NCBI RefSeq assembly: GCF_000803265.1
Contig: NW_014575396.1
Coordinates: 1-64,000 of the forward strand
Length of the DNA stretch: 64,000 nucleotides
Direction: 5' to 3'
DNA from: Ordospora colligata OC4
Taxonomy: Eukaryota; Microsporidia; Ordosporidae
Below, piece by piece: positions 3,871 through 47,865 of this stretch. The notes beneath the pieces were generated by a model that saw nothing but the letters and a program-made list of their open reading frames with translations, ran no database searches and had not been told where the DNA came from. How positions within the stretch are numbered: the first letter of the stretch is position 1; every line of letters starts with the position of its first letter. A program made the position numbers and the translations under genes.

Positions 3871-4062
3871 CTATTCATGCTTTCTTGGTTTTCTCTCACA
3901 CATTATCTCAATGCATTCATCAGAGTTGAATCTCAAAGGGCACACCAAACTTTCCACTTCCTCTCCTGAAACCTCCAATCTTCCTTTCTTGGCATTCTTC
4001 GCCTTTTCTTCAGCCTTCACTAGCTTTTGAATCATTCGTACCGGGTGTCCATTCAAATCCAT
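3871..4062 (-). CDS. Small basic protein of unknown function
   Basis: 63-aa ORF with an ATG start in a 670-bp space between YAK1 and SIN3. It has a predicted N-terminal helix rich in Lys/Glu/Ala (QKLVKAEEKAKNAKKG), a middle segment with two Cys, and a basic end (CERKPRKHE). No family is recognised. A GGGG run lies about 30 nt upstream and an AT-rich stretch just before the ATG. It could be a real small gene or a chance ORF next to the structured segment at 4085-4275. Confidence 0.4.
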   Translation of the reverse strand: MDLNGHPVRMIQKLVKAEEKAKNAKKGRLEVSGEEVESLVCPLRFNSDECIEIMCERKPRKHE

Positions 4063-4084
4063 TTTGTATATAAACTAAAATATA

Positions 4085-4275
4085 CACCCCTCCTGTCCTT
4101 ACGCAGGAGGTCTCTATCAATGACGTTCACACGGAGGTAGAGCAATTGCTAGTTTGGAAATCCAAACCATTGCATTAAATTAGTCCTATGTCTTCCGTGA
4201 CACAAGGCCATTTACAGCTTGCCTGTAAGTGATATCTTTGGAATTGGCTTAACGCCATTTTAATACTAACATTAA
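4085..4275. ncRNA. Candidate structured non-coding RNA, identity unknown
   Basis: This non-coding gap holds several nested hairpins: a 7-bp stem CCTCCTG/CAGGAGG near 4089-4110; a long arm closed by ACGGA/TCCGT (about 4132-4198) with GCAAT/ATTGC and GTTTGG-aaat-CCAAAC inside; TTACAG-cttgc-CTGTAA at about 4211-4227; and TGGC-ttaac-GCCA at about 4245-4257. Such density of pairing is unlike the other spacers here. On the plus strand GGAATTGGCTTA resembles the 3' conserved box of RNase P/MRP RNA, but the 5' box is not found. SRP, U-snRNA and tRNA signatures also do not fit. The strand is undecided. Confidence 0.35.
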
Positions 4276-4355
4276 CTCAAAAATCCCTCAACAGTCTAAA
4301 ATCCTTCACAAATATCTATGAAATATGATGTTTAATCAAAAATCACACAAAACAT

Positions 4356-6896
4356 TTACATCCTCCTCAAATATGATTTCAGATTAACATAAAAAATCTC
4401 AGATCCAAATACGTACCTCATGGCATAAGTCTCCGGATTCAGAATTACCTTAAGGTTTTGCTCCAAATGCCCTACTATTGGTGCTCTTCTACATCCTCTT
4501 TTCATAAAAGGACCTTCTACTTTACTATCTAGACAAGACGCTAAGTGCTCAAATCTCTTCACATACTCGTTCCAATTATAGCCCGGCTCATGCTTAATCA
4601 TTTTGATTTCTAAAAAATCATTCTCTTTCCTAAGACTATACAGTCCACTGCTTGTCTCCGTTCCTTTCAAGTCACATGGATTCAGATACTTATTCTCAAC
4701 CAACGAAATAATCCCCTTCTCTATTCGGGATATCATCTTCTTCAGGTTGTATAATCTAAATCCCTTACACTTCGTAATTTCACGAACTCCTTCCTCAAAA
4801 CTATATCCATCAATCTCCTTCTTCATAAAATCAGTACACAGATCCATCAACTTCATATAAGTCTCCTCTTTTTCTTTGCTATCTATCTCTTCACTAATAA
4901 TCCCTTCAAAAATCATTCTTTTTACCTCAGCTATTCTTTCATAGGCAAAAATAACAAATCTATATATACAAAACAGTGAAAACTCAGAAACAATCCTGAA
5001 GTCCTTATGCATATACTTCTCAAACACTTCATTCAGCATACTCAGCAGATCTTCCACAGCTGTCTTCTTATTATCAGTTTGACTAGTTTGAATATAAGCC
5101 TCACATAAACGTTTTACATCATTCAATACCTCATAATCATCGATATACACACACGCTCCTTCACCAGCACTTTCAACGATGCTTTTCATCGTAAAAATCT
5201 CCTTCTCACTTGCTTTATACGACGACCCAACCGCATCCAGCGCTTTGTAATAGTTCCTTTCAATCACTTCTTTCCACACTTTCCTTCGCTCCCTCACACA
5301 AAACCTTAGCTTTTTATTCATCATGTACAATCGCTTTATAACTATTGGAATAGCTATCTGCGGCTTCATCAAAATCCCTTCAAGTACCTCCGCTGCAGAC
5401 CGTCCATAAACTCCCTTCAAAACCTCCTTCATCACTCCAGGTGACATTCTTATATCCTTTATTCCAATCTCACACTCCTCGTTACTTGCAAGAACCTGCT
5501 CAAGCACACTTACAAAGTACTGTATCCTCTCAATCGCCATGTCCGCCTCAGATATCTCATCTTCAATTCGGAATAGCGCCTCCTCATGCACATTCCGCTT
5601 CAGAAACACATAATTCGAATCTTCAGATTCAAACTTAGGACAGCTTATGCATGTAAAGTTAAGAACTTCCTTTGCAATCCCCTCCTGGTACCTGTTGCTC
5701 TTGATTTCATCCACAAGAATCTTGTACGATCCATCTTCCATCTTATATCTATCTGTCTTATGCACTTCTTTCCCAACCTCTGCATAATTAATAAACTCTT
5801 TAAATCCCCTCACCAGTTCCTCATTCCTTAGCAATGGCTCTACAAGCGCCACCAAATCCCTCTCACTAATAAACTTTTGATTAAAGTAATTAATGCATTT
5901 TAGGAAATCATCCAGGAGATTCTTATCTTTCAGCACGTCCTTAATCCTTTGTAGAACATCCTTTTCGCCACTAATTCCCACTCGCTTCAATGGAACAAAA
6001 TTCTTTTCAAAGTCCTCGCAAAGATCTGGACTCTCCCACAACAAGCTATTGACCTCCGCCTTCATTCGGTCAAACAGTCCACTCTTCACTTGATGTGACT
6101 GTAACAGCTCTACAAAAGATCTATATATGCTTGGATTCTGGTGGTATCGCTTCTTCACTTTTTGTATAAACTCATGCGCTTGCTTGGCCTTCATCTTCTC
6201 ATATTCCTCTACCTTCCTAAACCCAGAGCTTACCTCCTCAGGTACTTCTTTTCCGCTTTGCGCATCATGCACGTTAGTAAATCGACTCATTACAGGGGCC
6301 TTGGCATTCTGACTTTCATCAACCCTGTACTTCGCATACACCCCATCGCTTTCTACCGCCTCTTCACTCATAAACACCGCAGTCATCACATCCTCTACTC
6401 CCTGTTTGCTTCCTTCATTCAATCTTTTTCGCTTACGATGCTTCATACTTGCATTCACACAAGATCCATCTTCCATATTCCTCAGGTACTTCGGAAGATA
6501 TCCATTAAAACGCACAACAAGATGTGGCTTTGCTTTCAGTATCTCCCTTACATTCATGCATGCTTCTTGCGCATCAATCTTCCCAAATTTGAAGTCCTTC
6601 ATTACCTCCACAAACTTATCATACACATCCATATTATTACAATACTCCTCCCGGATTCTATTCAAATACGAAATCGCTTCGTTCAGATCCACCTCGGCTT
6701 GCTGTCCCTTTCGAAACAACAGCTTCTCCACTTCTCTCCCACTCACAGATCTTCGTTCATGCGAATCTTCCCGAGCACTTGCCCTCCAGCATTCCTTTCT
6801 TCCATCCAAATCCTCGCCGTCCCCATCAACTATTCCCGAATCGCTCCAATGCTCTTCATTCTGATTACTGAGGCACTTATCATGGCTCCTTGGCAT
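4356..6896 (-). CDS. SIN3: SIN3-type transcriptional corepressor scaffold
   Basis: 846-aa protein with three paired amphipathic helix domains (PAH1 about 71-138, PAH2 about 238-301, PAH3 about 312-371). The SIN3 histone-deacetylase interaction domain follows (about 383-480), including the diagnostic stretches KEVLNFTCISCPKF, EDSNYVFLKRN and EEALFRIEDE. SIN3 scaffolds the Rpd3-type deacetylase complex in the nucleus. It is roughly half the length of yeast Sin3. I chose the ATG at 6896 because CCCTTCC directly precedes it; the upstream in-frame TTG codons lack an ATG. The N-terminal 65 residues are acidic and low-complexity. Confidence 0.9.
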   Translation of the reverse strand: MPRSHDKCLSNQNEEHWSDSGIVDGDGEDLDGRKECWRASAREDSHERRSVSGREVEKLLFRKGQQAEVDLNEAISYLNRIREEYCNNMDVYDKFVEVMKDFKFGKIDAQEACMNVREILKAKPHLVVRFNGYLPKYLRNMEDGSCVNASMKHRKRKRLNEGSKQGVEDVMTAVFMSEEAVESDGVYAKYRVDESQNAKAPVMSRFTNVHDAQSGKEVPEEVSSGFRKVEEYEKMKAKQAHEFIQKVKKRYHQNPSIYRSFVELLQSHQVKSGLFDRMKAEVNSLLWESPDLCEDFEKNFVPLKRVGISGEKDVLQRIKDVLKDKNLLDDFLKCINYFNQKFISERDLVALVEPLLRNEELVRGFKEFINYAEVGKEVHKTDRYKMEDGSYKILVDEIKSNRYQEGIAKEVLNFTCISCPKFESEDSNYVFLKRNVHEEALFRIEDEISEADMAIERIQYFVSVLEQVLASNEECEIGIKDIRMSPGVMKEVLKGVYGRSAAEVLEGILMKPQIAIPIVIKRLYMMNKKLRFCVRERRKVWKEVIERNYYKALDAVGSSYKASEKEIFTMKSIVESAGEGACVYIDDYEVLNDVKRLCEAYIQTSQTDNKKTAVEDLLSMLNEVFEKYMHKDFRIVSEFSLFCIYRFVIFAYERIAEVKRMIFEGIISEEIDSKEKEETYMKLMDLCTDFMKKEIDGYSFEEGVREITKCKGFRLYNLKKMISRIEKGIISLVENKYLNPCDLKGTETSSGLYSLRKENDFLEIKMIKHEPGYNWNEYVKRFEHLASCLDSKVEGPFMKRGCRRAPIVGHLEQNLKVILNPETYAMRYVFGSEIFYVNLKSYLRRM

Positions 6897-7060
6897 GGAA
6901 GGGCACTGTTTTTTATACAAATTTGTTTATCAATTTACACAATTAATAGCACCTTACATTTTCAATATCAACATCCATCTTTATTCATGCATTTTTAATT
7001 TTATGGCCTTTCAAAAATCATATCCCTAGCTTCATAAGCACAATCAATCGGTTATGTACT

Positions 7061-7130
7061 TAATCAATAGTCTACTTTATCCACTTCCATGCACCTAATC
7101 AATCATCTACTTTATCCACTTCCATCAAGT
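7061..7130. repeat. Imperfect 35-bp tandem repeat, two copies
   Basis: Two adjacent 35-bp units (7061-7095 and 7096-7130) share the core CTACTTTATCCACTTCCAT and the start TAATCAAT, differing at a few positions. They lie between the SNAPC3 stop and the SIN3 start, that is, upstream of SIN3. Confidence 0.85.
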
Positions 7131-7143
7131 ACATCACTCATCC

Positions 7144-7968
7144 TTATGATATATATTCATATTCAACTCCTGCATATCTGCTCTTGCCATCATCCGAATA
7201 AAATATCAATTCAAAACATCTTTTGCATAAAAATCCCTTCTTATCAGGCAGGATCGGGTCATTCCAGACCTTTACCACCGCATTGCTTTTCATGCAACAC
7301 TTACACAGCTGTGCCCTTCCAAAAAGACTCTTCACTGATAAATATCCATCCACTCTCCTATGGCAAAAAAACATCTTCGATATCCTTATAACCTCCTCAA
7401 ATCTACCATCATAAAAATATATCTCCTCAGTCATGCTATTCAAACACTTTCCAATCTCAACATTCCAGTCGCTTGTATCAAACACTCTCGTTTGGAACAG
7501 CATCATCGAAAACCTAATCGAATCTTCATCCATATTCTTCAGATACAAGCGCTTACCTATTGCAAAAAACATCTTGTCTGATATGCCATCTCGTCCTTTT
7601 AGCATTGCCCCAAAGTCCGATAAAAGACACTTCCCAGATACTGTAAACCTCGAAACCATCTCAGACCTAATAAAACACTGGCCTTCATAATACACGTTAC
7701 TAGGTCTATCTTCTTCTGTCACATTCCACTTACTTGCCTCTATCATCTCCTTCGGCAGCATACATTCATCCAACCCATTCATAAATCCCTTTGGATATAT
7801 TATCCTGTGGTTTGTAGAAAACATCTGGTCCCACTCAATTGGATATGTTCTTTCAGCTACCACAAGGCTGTACGTCATCTTCTTCATAGATCTTTTCCTT
7901 TTTTCAACGCTTTTTCCAGGCGCAATCTCAACAGCCCATCGTACCCTATCTAAATAATTCCTCTCCAT
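7144..7968 (-). CDS. SNAPC3: snRNA-activating protein complex subunit 3 (SNAP50) homologue
   Basis: 274-aa protein. Its C-terminal half follows SNAPC3: FFAIGKRLYLKN matches the FxxGxFYND region, MFFCHRRVDGYLSVKSL matches the YCHQGxCEHxxxxxDIR segment, and the zinc knuckle LCKCCMKSNA...GFLCKRCFELIFYSDDG matches the terminal CxxC...CxxC. SNAPc binds the proximal sequence element of snRNA promoters and recruits Pol II or Pol III. I chose the ATG at 7968 because CCCTGAGC precedes it; the frame extends 44 codons upstream across the divergent gene. Only 18 bp separate this start from the neighbouring start. Confidence 0.7.
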   Translation of the reverse strand: MERNYLDRVRWAVEIAPGKSVEKRKRSMKKMTYSLVVAERTYPIEWDQMFSTNHRIIYPKGFMNGLDECMLPKEMIEASKWNVTEEDRPSNVYYEGQCFIRSEMVSRFTVSGKCLLSDFGAMLKGRDGISDKMFFAIGKRLYLKNMDEDSIRFSMMLFQTRVFDTSDWNVEIGKCLNSMTEEIYFYDGRFEEVIRISKMFFCHRRVDGYLSVKSLFGRAQLCKCCMKSNAVVKVWNDPILPDKKGFLCKRCFELIFYSDDGKSRYAGVEYEYIS

Positions 7969-7986
7969 GCTCAGGGCTTGTCTCAT
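7969..7986. promoter_or_regulatory. 18-bp divergent promoter gap with a shared CCCT/AGGG motif
   Basis: The space between the ATGs of the SNAPC3 homologue (minus) and the ubiquitin-like gene (plus) is only 18 bp and contains one CAGGGC element. Read on the minus strand it is the CCCTGAGC start signal. On the plus strand it is a GGG-type element 10 nt from the ATG. Confidence 0.6.
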
Positions 7987-8502
7987 ATGATCGTAAAGGC
8001 CATAAACTGCGAAGACTTGTACATAGATGATCAATTCAACAGCATAGATGAACTCAAGCATCTCATCAAGCACAAGTACGGCATTGCCGTAGAATCCCAA
8101 TGCATAGTGCCAAATGGAAGATTATACATCCTTGGTATATTCGATAACATTCACGTTGCATTGCAAGAAGAAGCTCAACAAAATCCATTTGCACAGTTTG
8201 GATGTCCTGATTCAGTATTCAACACATTGAGAGATAAAGGCATGAACAACGAAGTTATAGAAAAATACATATTACCTCATAAACAAGACACCAATCCAAC
8301 AAACAGCATATCAGTACCCCAAGTCAACATTCAGAAAGCCCTCCAGACTGCACTCAAACTAAATTCATCTCAATATTTCTCCATAAAAGATATAACAAAA
8401 TCAATCGATGACGAGGTAAAAAAGCTAATCATAGAAAATACCAAGCAGTACATCCAATTGATAATCAACTCTTCAGAAACAGACACTCATAAAAATGCAT
8501 AA
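7987..8502 (+). CDS. Ubiquitin-like-domain protein
   Basis: 171-aa protein from the ATG at 7987. Residues 1 to about 62 look like a ubiquitin fold (MIVKAINCEDLYIDD, then SIDELKHLIKHKYGI and a beta strand pair). The rest contains NPFAQFG, a short UBA-like stretch (SVFNTLRDKGMNNEVIEKYI) and a helical C-terminus. The order UBL then NPF/UBA-like segments recalls ubiquilin/Dsk2 shuttle factors, which carry substrates to the proteasome, but similarity is weak. No C-terminal diglycine is present, so it is not a conjugated modifier. Confidence 0.6.
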   Translation: MIVKAINCEDLYIDDQFNSIDELKHLIKHKYGIAVESQCIVPNGRLYILGIFDNIHVALQEEAQQNPFAQFGCPDSVFNTLRDKGMNNEVIEKYILPHKQDTNPTNSISVPQVNIQKALQTALKLNSSQYFSIKDITKSIDDEVKKLIIENTKQYIQLIINSSETDTHKNA

Positions 8503-46005: not shown

Positions 46006-46530
46006 ATGATGTTTGTTACTGGCATTCCTGAGTCGCTAGATGATGATCTGTTTAAGGAGATGTTGTCTGTGTTCGGTGAAGTGAAGATATTTGAAAGAGG
46101 ATGCGATCTGAGTGGAAATCCATCCACATGGGCATTTGTGAGCTACTATGAAAGCACATCAGCTGAAAGTATGCATTCGACTCTATCAGGCATTTGCATT
46201 GGACAGAATAAAATATCTGTATATCCAGAATTGAATGAGTGCATAGAAAATGCGAATGAATGCATGATACGCAAAATCAACGCCGTAATTGCAAAGTATA
46301 AGGATGGTGTTGAAAACACCGACATTCTAAATAAATTTCTGTCAAGCTATAGACTGATTTACGGTCAGGCGAGCAACTCAAACAGATTTGACGAGGCGCT
46401 GCAAAAATGGCTTCATGAAGAGTCAGAAATACGCAAAGTTTGTATGAATGCACAGAAAGCGCTTGATGATAGAAATAACATGCAGTATAGGCATCTATCG
46501 ATGTATGATGACGATAACGTCAAAAAGTAA
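46006..46530 (+). CDS. RRM protein resembling RBM25/Snu71
   Basis: 174-aa protein. An RRM spans residues 1-80 (MFVTGIPESLDDDLFKEMLS, WAFVSYYESTSAESMHSTL, ICIGQNKISVYPE), and its layout is close to the RBM25 RRM. A helical tail with charged residues follows. RBM25/Snu71 is a U1 snRNP-associated splicing factor, which would make sense beside the spliced BolA gene 95 bp downstream, although position proves nothing. The PWI domain of RBM25 is not evident. RRM identity is firm; the family is an inference. Confidence 0.6.
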   Translation: MMFVTGIPESLDDDLFKEMLSVFGEVKIFERGCDLSGNPSTWAFVSYYESTSAESMHSTLSGICIGQNKISVYPELNECIENANECMIRKINAVIAKYKDGVENTDILNKFLSSYRLIYGQASNSNRFDEALQKWLHEESEIRKVCMNAQKALDDRNNMQYRHLSMYDDDNVKK

Positions 46531-46624: not shown

Positions 46625-46941
46625 ATGGATAATAGGATTATTGAGAAGAGCATCAGAGATGCATTAGAGAAAAGATTCAGGCATTCATGCATGGAAATCA
46701 CAAACACATCGCCAGATCATAAAGGCCACCTGGATTCTTCAAAAACAAATACAGCAGAAACACACTTTTCTATCAAAATAAAGTCAGAAACATTCAATCA
46801 AATGGTAAGTCAAAATTATTGTAACTTAAGAAAATATCAGATAGGCATAGACTTGTTCATACTGCATTGGATGATGCATTTGAGAACGGATTACATGCGA
46901 TTGAAATAGACTGCGAGTCTGATTATAGCCAGTCGAACTAG
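46625..46941 (+). CDS. BolA-family protein, spliced (exons 46625-46804 and 46831-46941)
   Basis: Exon 1 encodes 60 residues that open a BolA domain (SIRDALEKRF, MEITNTSPDHKGH, ETHFSIKIKSETF). Read unspliced, the frame then loses all family resemblance. Removing GTAAGT...TAACTTAAG (46805-46830) joins ...ETFNQM to KISDRHRLVHTALDD and FENGLHAIEI, exactly the BolA C-terminus, with the usual seven residues between F and RHRLV. The product is 96 aa. BolA proteins partner with monothiol glutaredoxins in Fe-S and iron handling, which fits the mtHsp70 and Atm1-like genes here. The retained-intron product would be 94 aa with a scrambled end. Confidence 0.88.
46805..46830 (+). other. 26-nt spliceosomal intron in the BolA gene
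   Basis: 5' splice site GTAAGT, branch-like TAAC and 3' TTAAG directly after it, 26 nt in all. This form, with the branch A a few bases from the acceptor, is that reported for short microsporidian introns. The length is not a multiple of three and no in-frame stop lies within it. Confidence 0.85.
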
Positions 46942-47088: not shown

Positions 47089-47865
47089 ATGCATTTATAC
47101 AACTTCATGCTGTTGAAATTGTTGTTCATCCTCGCTGCTGCTAGAGGTACAGAAGTCCCAGATATATGTGGAAAGGCCGGTCTCATTGTTCTGAACTTTA
47201 CAGAAGGGCCTGTTGCCGGTGTTACTGACAAGATCCTGAACACAATGAAGGACCTGGATGTAAAGGGTATGTTTACATTTACTGTGAACCAGCGTGTAAC
47301 TGGAAATGTCAAGAACCTATATCAGAGAGCATGGGAAGAAGGACACACGGTCGGGCTCAGACTCAATCCAAGCTTGGACAGTGATTATGGCGCAATGAAT
47401 CGTGATTCCATGGAGCAGCTTGTAAAGGAAGAACTCGATACGATTGACGGTCTTTCACACTCAGAGATCAGATATGCAACTCTTCCAGTCAATGGAGGCG
47501 AAGTAAACTCTGAAATGTACGATGTGTTGACTGAGAACGGAGTTCTTCCTGTTGGATACACATTCTGCCCATATGATTACGATGGGAAGGAAATCGAGAA
47601 TTTCGAAGACCTGATCGATAATTCAAACCCAAATAACCACTCATTCATCGTTATGATGCATGATGGGATGGAAGCCGATACGTCACGCTTGGAGCAGATG
47701 GTGCAGATAGGTAGAGACCGTGGATATACGTTTGTAAATATGGATGAATGTCTCAAAGGATACAAAGGCGCACCTGGCGAGCCAGAGCTCAAACTCCGAG
47801 GAAAGGGTGTTGAAAGCATCGCAAGCTTCATGCCATTCATCTTGCTTTTGGCAAGACTCTTGTAA
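47089..47865 (+). CDS. Polysaccharide (chitin) deacetylase-like surface protein, probably inactive
   Basis: 258-aa secreted protein: signal peptide ([20 protein letters not shown]), NodB-like domain, and a C-terminal hydrophobic stretch ([16 protein letters not shown]) suitable for GPI anchoring. It has the size and layout of the E. cuniculi deacetylase-like protein, a developmentally expressed wall protein whose structure has been reported and which lacked deacetylase activity. Here too the catalytic TFDDGP motif has become NFTEGP and the HxxxH metal motif is gone ([10 protein letters not shown]). The promoter is AT-rich with no CCC element. A later ATG (47107) would also leave a signal peptide. 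Confidence 0.85.

What the first reader, a model, noticed from the sequence alone, without database searches (positions are those of the whole stretch)
46625..46941. BolA gene split by a 26-nt intron that an ORF caller cannot see
The unspliced ORF keeps BolA similarity for 60 residues and then reads nonsense. Removing 46805-46830 (GTAAGT...TAACTTAAG) restores RHRLVH and GLHAIEI at the family spacing. This implies a working spliceosome in an almost intronless genome and shows the splice-site rules for finding more. Both spliced (96 aa) and retained (94 aa) forms are open, so retention would give a different protein and not a truncated one.
Basis: partly seen in the sequence, partly recalled or inferred. 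Interest (0 to 1): 0.75.

Follow-up and report, generated by a model that had tools for sequence, protein, structure and literature searches.

The report
Short known-type intron in BolA gene
A tiny 26-base intron interrupts a small iron-sulphur helper gene (BolA) of the Daphnia parasite Ordospora colligata; the intron looks real, but it is of a known kind and the public protein record already shows the spliced product.

Summary
Removing 46805-46830 (26 nt, GTAAGT...TAACTTAAG) joins two halves of a BolA domain with nothing missing or extra. In the whole genome the BolA family matches two stretches, 46664-46804 (model 1-43) and 46831-46917 (model 44-72). Spliced protein: 72 bits; unspliced: 33.6 bits, first half only. 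The genome also has a Prp8-type domain, U2 and U6, and three ribosomal-protein introns with the same signals. The intron reading is well supported, although no RNA was seen.

It is not new. The spliced 96-residue protein is public, 100% identical, as 'BolA-like protein [Ordospora colligata OC4]', and GT-AG introns of 22-76 nt are established for Encephalitozoon cuniculi (PMC3629993). The splice motif alone occurs at about chance frequency: 24 places genome-wide, 4 supported by protein families. The retained form loses the conserved second half and is probably waste.

The more interesting residue is BolA itself: a BolA1-like protein in a genome with an Isu1-type scaffold and a Grx3-like glutaredoxin but no IscA or Nfu match, and not found in a protein search that covers Encephalitozoon and O. 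pajunii.

The parts
46625..46804 (+). BolA exon 1: codons 1-60, ends ...CAAATG, phase 0
   Evidence: Pfam BolA model 1-43 at 46664-46804
46805..46830 (+). 26-nt GT-AG intron
   Evidence: splicing itself not seen
46805..46810 (+). 5' splice site GTAAGT, preceded by ATG
   Evidence: Sequence; same ATG|GTAAGT context in three ribosomal-protein introns
46822..46825 (+). TAAC, inferred branch site (branch A inferred at 46824); its TAA is a stop in the reading frame of exon 2
   Evidence: branch function inferred
46829..46830 (+). 3' splice site AG
46831..46941 (+). BolA exon 2: codons 61-96 plus stop TAG; holds RHRLVH and GLHAIEI
   Evidence: Pfam BolA model 44-72 at 46831-46917
46907..46909 (+). 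stop codon of the intron-retained reading (94 aa)

Best explanation
46625-46941 is a BolA gene of Ordospora colligata interrupted by a 26-nt spliceosomal intron of the ordinary microsporidian kind. A reduced spliceosome removes 46805-46830 and gives a 96-residue BolA1-like protein (shown: the anatomy, the family match, spliceosome genes; inferred: actual splicing). Retention shifts the frame and discards the conserved second half, so retained transcripts are most likely non-functional (inferred). The spliced protein probably binds a [2Fe-2S] cluster together with a monothiol glutaredoxin, most likely the Grx3-like CGFT protein on contig C5 (inferred from what BolA proteins do elsewhere; clearly less certain than the intron).
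For: Abutment of the two BolA halves at the GT-AG boundaries; 72 against 33.6 bits; GT-AG pair in the top-scoring group of 18,589 removals; 0 of 119 relatives have an insertion at the junction; identical 96-aa protein in NCBI, UniRef and nr; Pfam U6-snRNA_bdg, a Prp8 domain by recall, E 6e-70; U6 64.2 bits with the ACAGAGA box; U2 75.8 bits with GTAGTA; three more introns with the same signals in ribosomal proteins S30, L37ae and L5e/L18. E. cuniculi introns are GT-AG, 22-76 nt, and all shift the frame or hold a stop if retained (PMC3629993, passages). Partner side: glutaredoxin match with CGFT on C5 and Isu1-type scaffold.
Against: No RNA evidence. The motif alone is at about chance frequency. 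The branch context is TTGTAAC; two of the three ribosomal-protein introns have CTAAC (the third, L5e/L18, also has GTAAC). No second microsporidian BolA was found to compare. The intron lies 60 codons into the gene, whereas the three ribosomal-protein introns lie directly after an ATG that is taken as the start.
Confidence: 0.94

Rival explanations
1. There is no intron: an assembly or base-call error (or a real inactivating indel) shifts the frame of a contiguous BolA gene.
For: No RNA evidence; the best reading that drops only 2 nt (at 46825) still scores 61.7 bits in the family profile.
Against: In the frame of exon 2 a TAA lies at 46822-46824, so an error would have to sit at or after it; the product would then carry about 8 extra residues where 0 of 119 relatives have an insertion and scores about 9 bits below the spliced form. 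GTAAGT, TAAC and AG at the ends would be coincidence.
Confidence: 0.03
2. Programmed ribosomal frameshifting (to the -1 frame) joins the two halves without splicing.
For: Exon 2 is in the -1 frame relative to exon 1.
Against: The TAA at 46822-46824 in the target frame leaves only the last bases of the stretch for the shift; by eye there is no X XXY YYZ heptamer in the zero frame there (no tool scan); same insertion problem as above.
Confidence: 0.01
3. Intron retention is a regulated switch that makes a second useful 94-aa protein.
For: The retained frame stays open for 34 more codons; low splicing levels are reported in E. cuniculi, 30 of 37 introns under 50% spliced (PMC3629993).
Against: The retained tail has no Pfam match (35-aa piece) and drops the conserved second half; [quoted passage not shown]
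Confidence: 0.03

Closest known systems
Short spliceosomal introns of Encephalitozoon cuniculi (37 junctions, 22-76 nt; PMC3629993, passages seen)
   Same: GT-AG ends, strict 5' and branch motifs, very short, in a compact genome with a reduced spliceosome; retention breaks the frame or brings a stop.
   Different: I saw no list of the E. cuniculi intron genes (papers PMC6349667 and PMC3809491 not held), so whether E. cuniculi has a BolA gene with this intron is open. 'BolA' has 0 occurrences in the main text of PMC3629993.
BolA-like protein [Ordospora colligata OC4], public protein record (P0001)
   Same: 100% identical over 96 of 96 residues; it is the spliced product.
   Different: No difference in the protein; I did not see the record's exon coordinates or any RNA evidence behind it.
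BolA1-type proteins (Pfam PF01722; plant BolA-like chains, mouse and human BolA1, Giardia BolA1 of PMC10578589)
   Same: ETHF, RHRLVH and LHAI motifs, invariant His of the HA pair.
   Different: Sits in a genome with no IscA and no Nfu match; its likely partner reads CGFT and not CGFS.

Membership tests
Microsporidian short spliceosomal intron | GT-AG ends with extended GTAAGT | tested here: met
Microsporidian short spliceosomal intron | Length within the E. cuniculi range of 22-76 nt | tested here: met
   26 nt; range from PMC3629993
Microsporidian short spliceosomal intron | Branch motif a few bases before the 3' AG | tested here: met
   TAACTTAAG; compare TAACTTTAG, TAACTTTTAG, TAACGCAAAG in three ribosomal-protein introns. 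Sequence only; branch use not shown.
Microsporidian short spliceosomal intron | Retention shifts the frame or brings a stop | tested here: met
   Frame shift; BolA second half lost
Microsporidian short spliceosomal intron | Spliceosome parts in the same genome | tested here: met
   U6-snRNA_bdg domain (Prp8), U6, U2; other parts not sought
Microsporidian short spliceosomal intron | Removed from RNA | not testable with these tools
   No RNA reads available
BolA (PF01722) | Score over the curated cut-off across nearly the whole model | tested here: met
   72 bits against 25.7, model 1-72 of 76 for the spliced form
BolA (PF01722) | Conserved HA with the cluster-binding His | tested here: met
   H82 A83 invariant in the 5-sequence alignment; cluster role of the conserved His taken from PMC10578589 (passages)
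BolA1 subtype | Closer to BolA1 than to BolA2 or BolA3 | tested here: met
   Solved structures: plant chains 4pui 6.4e-11 and 4pug 1.2e-10, 1v60 1e-6, human BolA-like protein 1 (5lci) 5.8e-6; BolA2 chains 0.01, BolA-like protein 3 0.73. That 4pui/4pug are plant BolA1-type and 1v60 is mouse BolA1 is recalled. No tree was built.
BolA1 subtype | Works with a CGFS monothiol glutaredoxin | tested here: inconclusive
   A Grx3-like protein is present but reads CGFT; binding not testable

The most novel reading that the evidence does not exclude
O. colligata keeps (or acquired) a BolA1-type protein that the published picture of microsporidian mitosomes does not include: with no IscA or Nfu left, BolA would work directly with the Grx3-like glutaredoxin and Isu1. 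Either it is missing from its nearest relatives, or it is present and overlooked there because the gene is short and split by the intron. Both are open on this evidence: the same database and tool found the Grx3-like protein in O. pajunii (81%) and four Encephalitozoon species (49-54%) but no BolA in any of them.
Probability: 0.4. Interest if true: 0.45.

Novelty: already known. Interest (0 to 1): 0.25.

Why it matters
As an intron it adds one clean example of how a reduced spliceosome may recognise very short introns, and it shows how small split genes can be lost to ORF-based annotation. The wider point would be the BolA content: PMC5216125 (passages) describes late iron-sulphur factors, Nfu1 and Bol3 included, as lost in microsporidia after looking at E. 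cuniculi and Trachipleistophora hominis, and PMC10578589 (passages) recounts that BolA was tied to aerobic metabolism until one was found in Giardia mitosomes. A BolA1-like gene in O. colligata makes it testable whether BolA has a role beside a mitosome without IscA or Nfu.

Tried and rejected
Conserved intron in a relative: the one genome contigs locus returned for the BolA protein (L032, a Methanobrevibacter MAG contig, 47% over residues 3-50; 1 of 52 stretches confirmed by the tool) is spurious. The match is out of frame inside a long open frame, and its best domain score with a BolA profile is -1.0 bits.

Other microsporidian BolA proteins: the single-sequence search returned only the O. 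colligata protein itself (1 of 1 candidates). The profile search gave 3849 hits of which 120 were listed; apart from P0001, the listed rows that name an organism are plants or green algae, because the seeds were mostly plant and algal chains. It says nothing about microsporidia among the 3729 unlisted.

Motif as proof: rejected, since it occurs at about chance frequency. The window match at 5475-5513 on the minus strand lies in an 854-codon ORF and its two readings (36 and 39 nt) keep the frame, so it was not taken as an intron. The pair of identical 30-nt matches on C2 and C6 looks like a repeat and joins no long reading frame.

A first profile enumeration was faulty: its profile wrongly included 118 glutaredoxin proteins that one search had fetched in the same turn (237 rows in place of 119). 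It was repeated with the 119 BolA rows only and the numbers given come from the repeat.

Literature on microsporidian BolA: searches 'microsporidia'+'BolA' (10 papers, 10 listed), two of 'Encephalitozoon'/'BolA-like'/'intron' (267 papers, 20 listed), 'BolA'+'Encephalitozoon'+'mitochondri' (18 papers, 15 listed), 'BolA'+'Nosema' (13 papers, 12 listed), three of 'microsporidian'/'mitosome'/'iron-sulphur cluster'/'Grx5'/'Bol1' (57 papers, 15 listed). From the listings and the passages opened, I saw no report of a BolA protein in a microsporidian; PMC5216125 speaks of the loss of Bol3. 'BolA' has 0 occurrences in the main texts of PMC3629993, PMC4589312, PMC10158259, PMC10815200, PMC10618108 and PMC9997559. 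The O. colligata genome paper (PMC4313915) is not held, so what it says about introns or BolA is unknown to me. Horizontal transfer of BolA was not tested.

Full report
What the window is. The BolA protein encoded here is identical, 96 of 96 residues, to 'BolA-like protein [Ordospora colligata OC4]', so the window comes from this microsporidian parasite of Daphnia or something almost the same. The assembly has 2,279,121 bases in 13 contigs and the window is part of C12. NCBI places Ordospora in Microsporidia. Neighbours are an RRM-domain ORF (46006-46530) and a polysaccharide-deacetylase-like ORF (47089-47865, 23.5 bits against a cut-off of 23.1).

The observation. The frame that starts at 46625 reads 94 codons to a stop at 46907-46909; with 46805-46830 removed it reads 96 codons to a stop that ends at 46941. 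The Pfam BolA model, searched against the genome in six frames without any intron model, gives two matches: 46664-46804, model 1-43, 32.9 bits, and 46831-46917, model 44-72, 25.4 bits. The ends fall before the GT and after the AG, and the model positions are consecutive. The spliced protein scores 72 bits (E 4.9e-20, model 1-72), the unspliced 33.6 bits (model 1-43), and the retained tail has no match.

How far chance could explain it. I scored 18,589 possible removals of 4-80 nt starting at 46640-46899 (10,102 distinct proteins) with a profile made from the other 119 BolA proteins listed (O. colligata left out). The best score, 70.8 bits, is shared by three proteins from five boundary pairs; 46805-46830 is one of the five and the only GT-AG pair among them; 25 of the 18,589 pairs are GT-AG; the unspliced form scores 35.9 and ranks 3462nd. 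Nearby lengths score only a little less (68.5-68.6), so the profile does not fix the exact base; the GT-AG rule does. In 119 of 119 relatives the stretch that corresponds to E45-E85 has 41 residues, as in the spliced protein, and none has an insertion at the junction. Those relatives that name an organism are plants and green algae, so this is a narrow sample.

Is the motif itself informative? Not by its frequency. GTAAGT-N(8-38)-TAAC-N(0-5)-AG occurs 26 times (24 distinct places) in the genome, against 325 for the reversed control pattern, which is not matched for word content; in the window it occurs three times, two of them overlapping, against 0.77 expected, with 7 of 100 shuffles reaching three. 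I examined 22 of the 22 distinct places outside the window, the shortest form of each. Three give family-supported spliced proteins: ribosomal S30 (C5:217862-217906, 45 nt, 56.5 bits), L37ae (C8:124081-124129, 49 nt, 107.6 bits) and L5e/L18 (C6:112318-112357, 40 nt, 216.7 bits). All three follow an ATG, as ATG|GTAAGT, which I take as the start codon; the BolA intron also follows an ATG, but there it is codon 60, inside the domain. So 4 of 24 places are supported. At several others splicing lengthens a frame; two of those were run through Pfam without a match (L014, L011), the rest were not.

Spliceosome. The genome encodes the Pfam U6-snRNA_bdg domain, which I know as part of Prp8 (E 6e-70, in an open frame of 2072 codons), U6 (64.2 bits, with ACAGAGA) and U2 (75.8 bits, with GTAGTA). 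I did not look for U1, U4, U5 or further proteins. For the relative E. cuniculi, 37 introns of 22-76 nt, all GT-AG, were confirmed by RNA-seq, splicing levels were low (30 of 37 below 50%), and all introns hold stops or shift the frame when retained (PMC3629993, passages). The BolA intron fits this pattern in each respect I could test.

Rivals. A base-call error or an inactivating indel would have to lie at or after 46822-46824, because the frame of exon 2 has TAA there; the resulting protein would have about eight extra residues where no relative in the set has any and the GT-AG signals would be coincidence. Against this, the best two-base reading still scores 61.7 bits, so the profile score alone does not exclude it. 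Frameshifting by the ribosome meets the same TAA.

What the protein probably does. Among solved structures it is nearest to BolA1-type proteins (plant chains 6.4e-11 and 1.2e-10, mouse 1e-6, human BolA-like protein 1 5.8e-6) and far from BolA2 (0.01) and BolA3 (0.73) (the labels of the plant and mouse chains are partly recalled). The genome has an Isu1-type scaffold (NifU_N, E 2.9e-50), three glutaredoxin-domain genes, one of them Grx3-like with CGFT, a single BolA, and no match to IscA (PF01521) or Nfu (PF01106); these searches ignore introns, so a split gene could be missed. BolA1 acts with the monothiol glutaredoxin Grx5 elsewhere (PMC10578589, passages). I infer that this BolA pairs with the Grx3-like protein; the site, mitosome or cytosol, is open. 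PMC5216125 (passages) lists Nfu1 and Bol3 with the late factors lost in microsporidia and found no genes of that part in E. cuniculi or T. hominis; the passages do not state the fate of Bol1.

Is BolA rare in microsporidia? In the same protein database the Grx3-like protein of this genome found its relatives in O. pajunii (81%) and in E. cuniculi, E. hellem, E. romaleae and E. intestinalis (49-54%), while the BolA query found only itself. The two queries differ in length (197 and 96 aa), so the shorter one is less sensitive, but an O. pajunii protein of around 80% identity should have been found. Either these species lack BolA or their annotation missed a short gene split by an intron. I could not search their DNA.

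Verdict. A well-supported and ordinary intron whose spliced product is already a public protein record. The remaining interest lies in BolA being there at all.

Noticed in passing
46625-46941 and G000:C5:270135-270338, G000:C1:38041-38412: BolA1-like gene in a genome with an Isu1-type scaffold and a Grx3-like (CGFT) glutaredoxin but no IscA or Nfu match; no BolA found for Encephalitozoon or O. pajunii although their Grx3-like proteins are found.
   Followed up: partly
G000:C5:96470-96493 (L014, minus strand): 24-nt intron-like stretch GTAAGTGCCATTCACTAACTTAAG; splicing joins two pieces of a hydrophobic ORF of 111 aa from the ATG; no Pfam match.
   Followed up: partly
G000:C5:217862-217906, C8:124081-124129, C6:112318-112357: Introns of 45, 49 and 40 nt directly after an ATG in ribosomal proteins S30, L37ae and L5e/L18.
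   Followed up: yes
G000:C2:101360-101389 and C6:134329-134358: Identical 30-nt intron-like string at two places, apparently part of a repeat and not an intron.
   Followed up: no
window 4001-8000: Strong GC skew (-0.438; next strongest 4-kb block -0.244) over a stretch that holds an 854-codon ORF on the minus strand.
   Followed up: no
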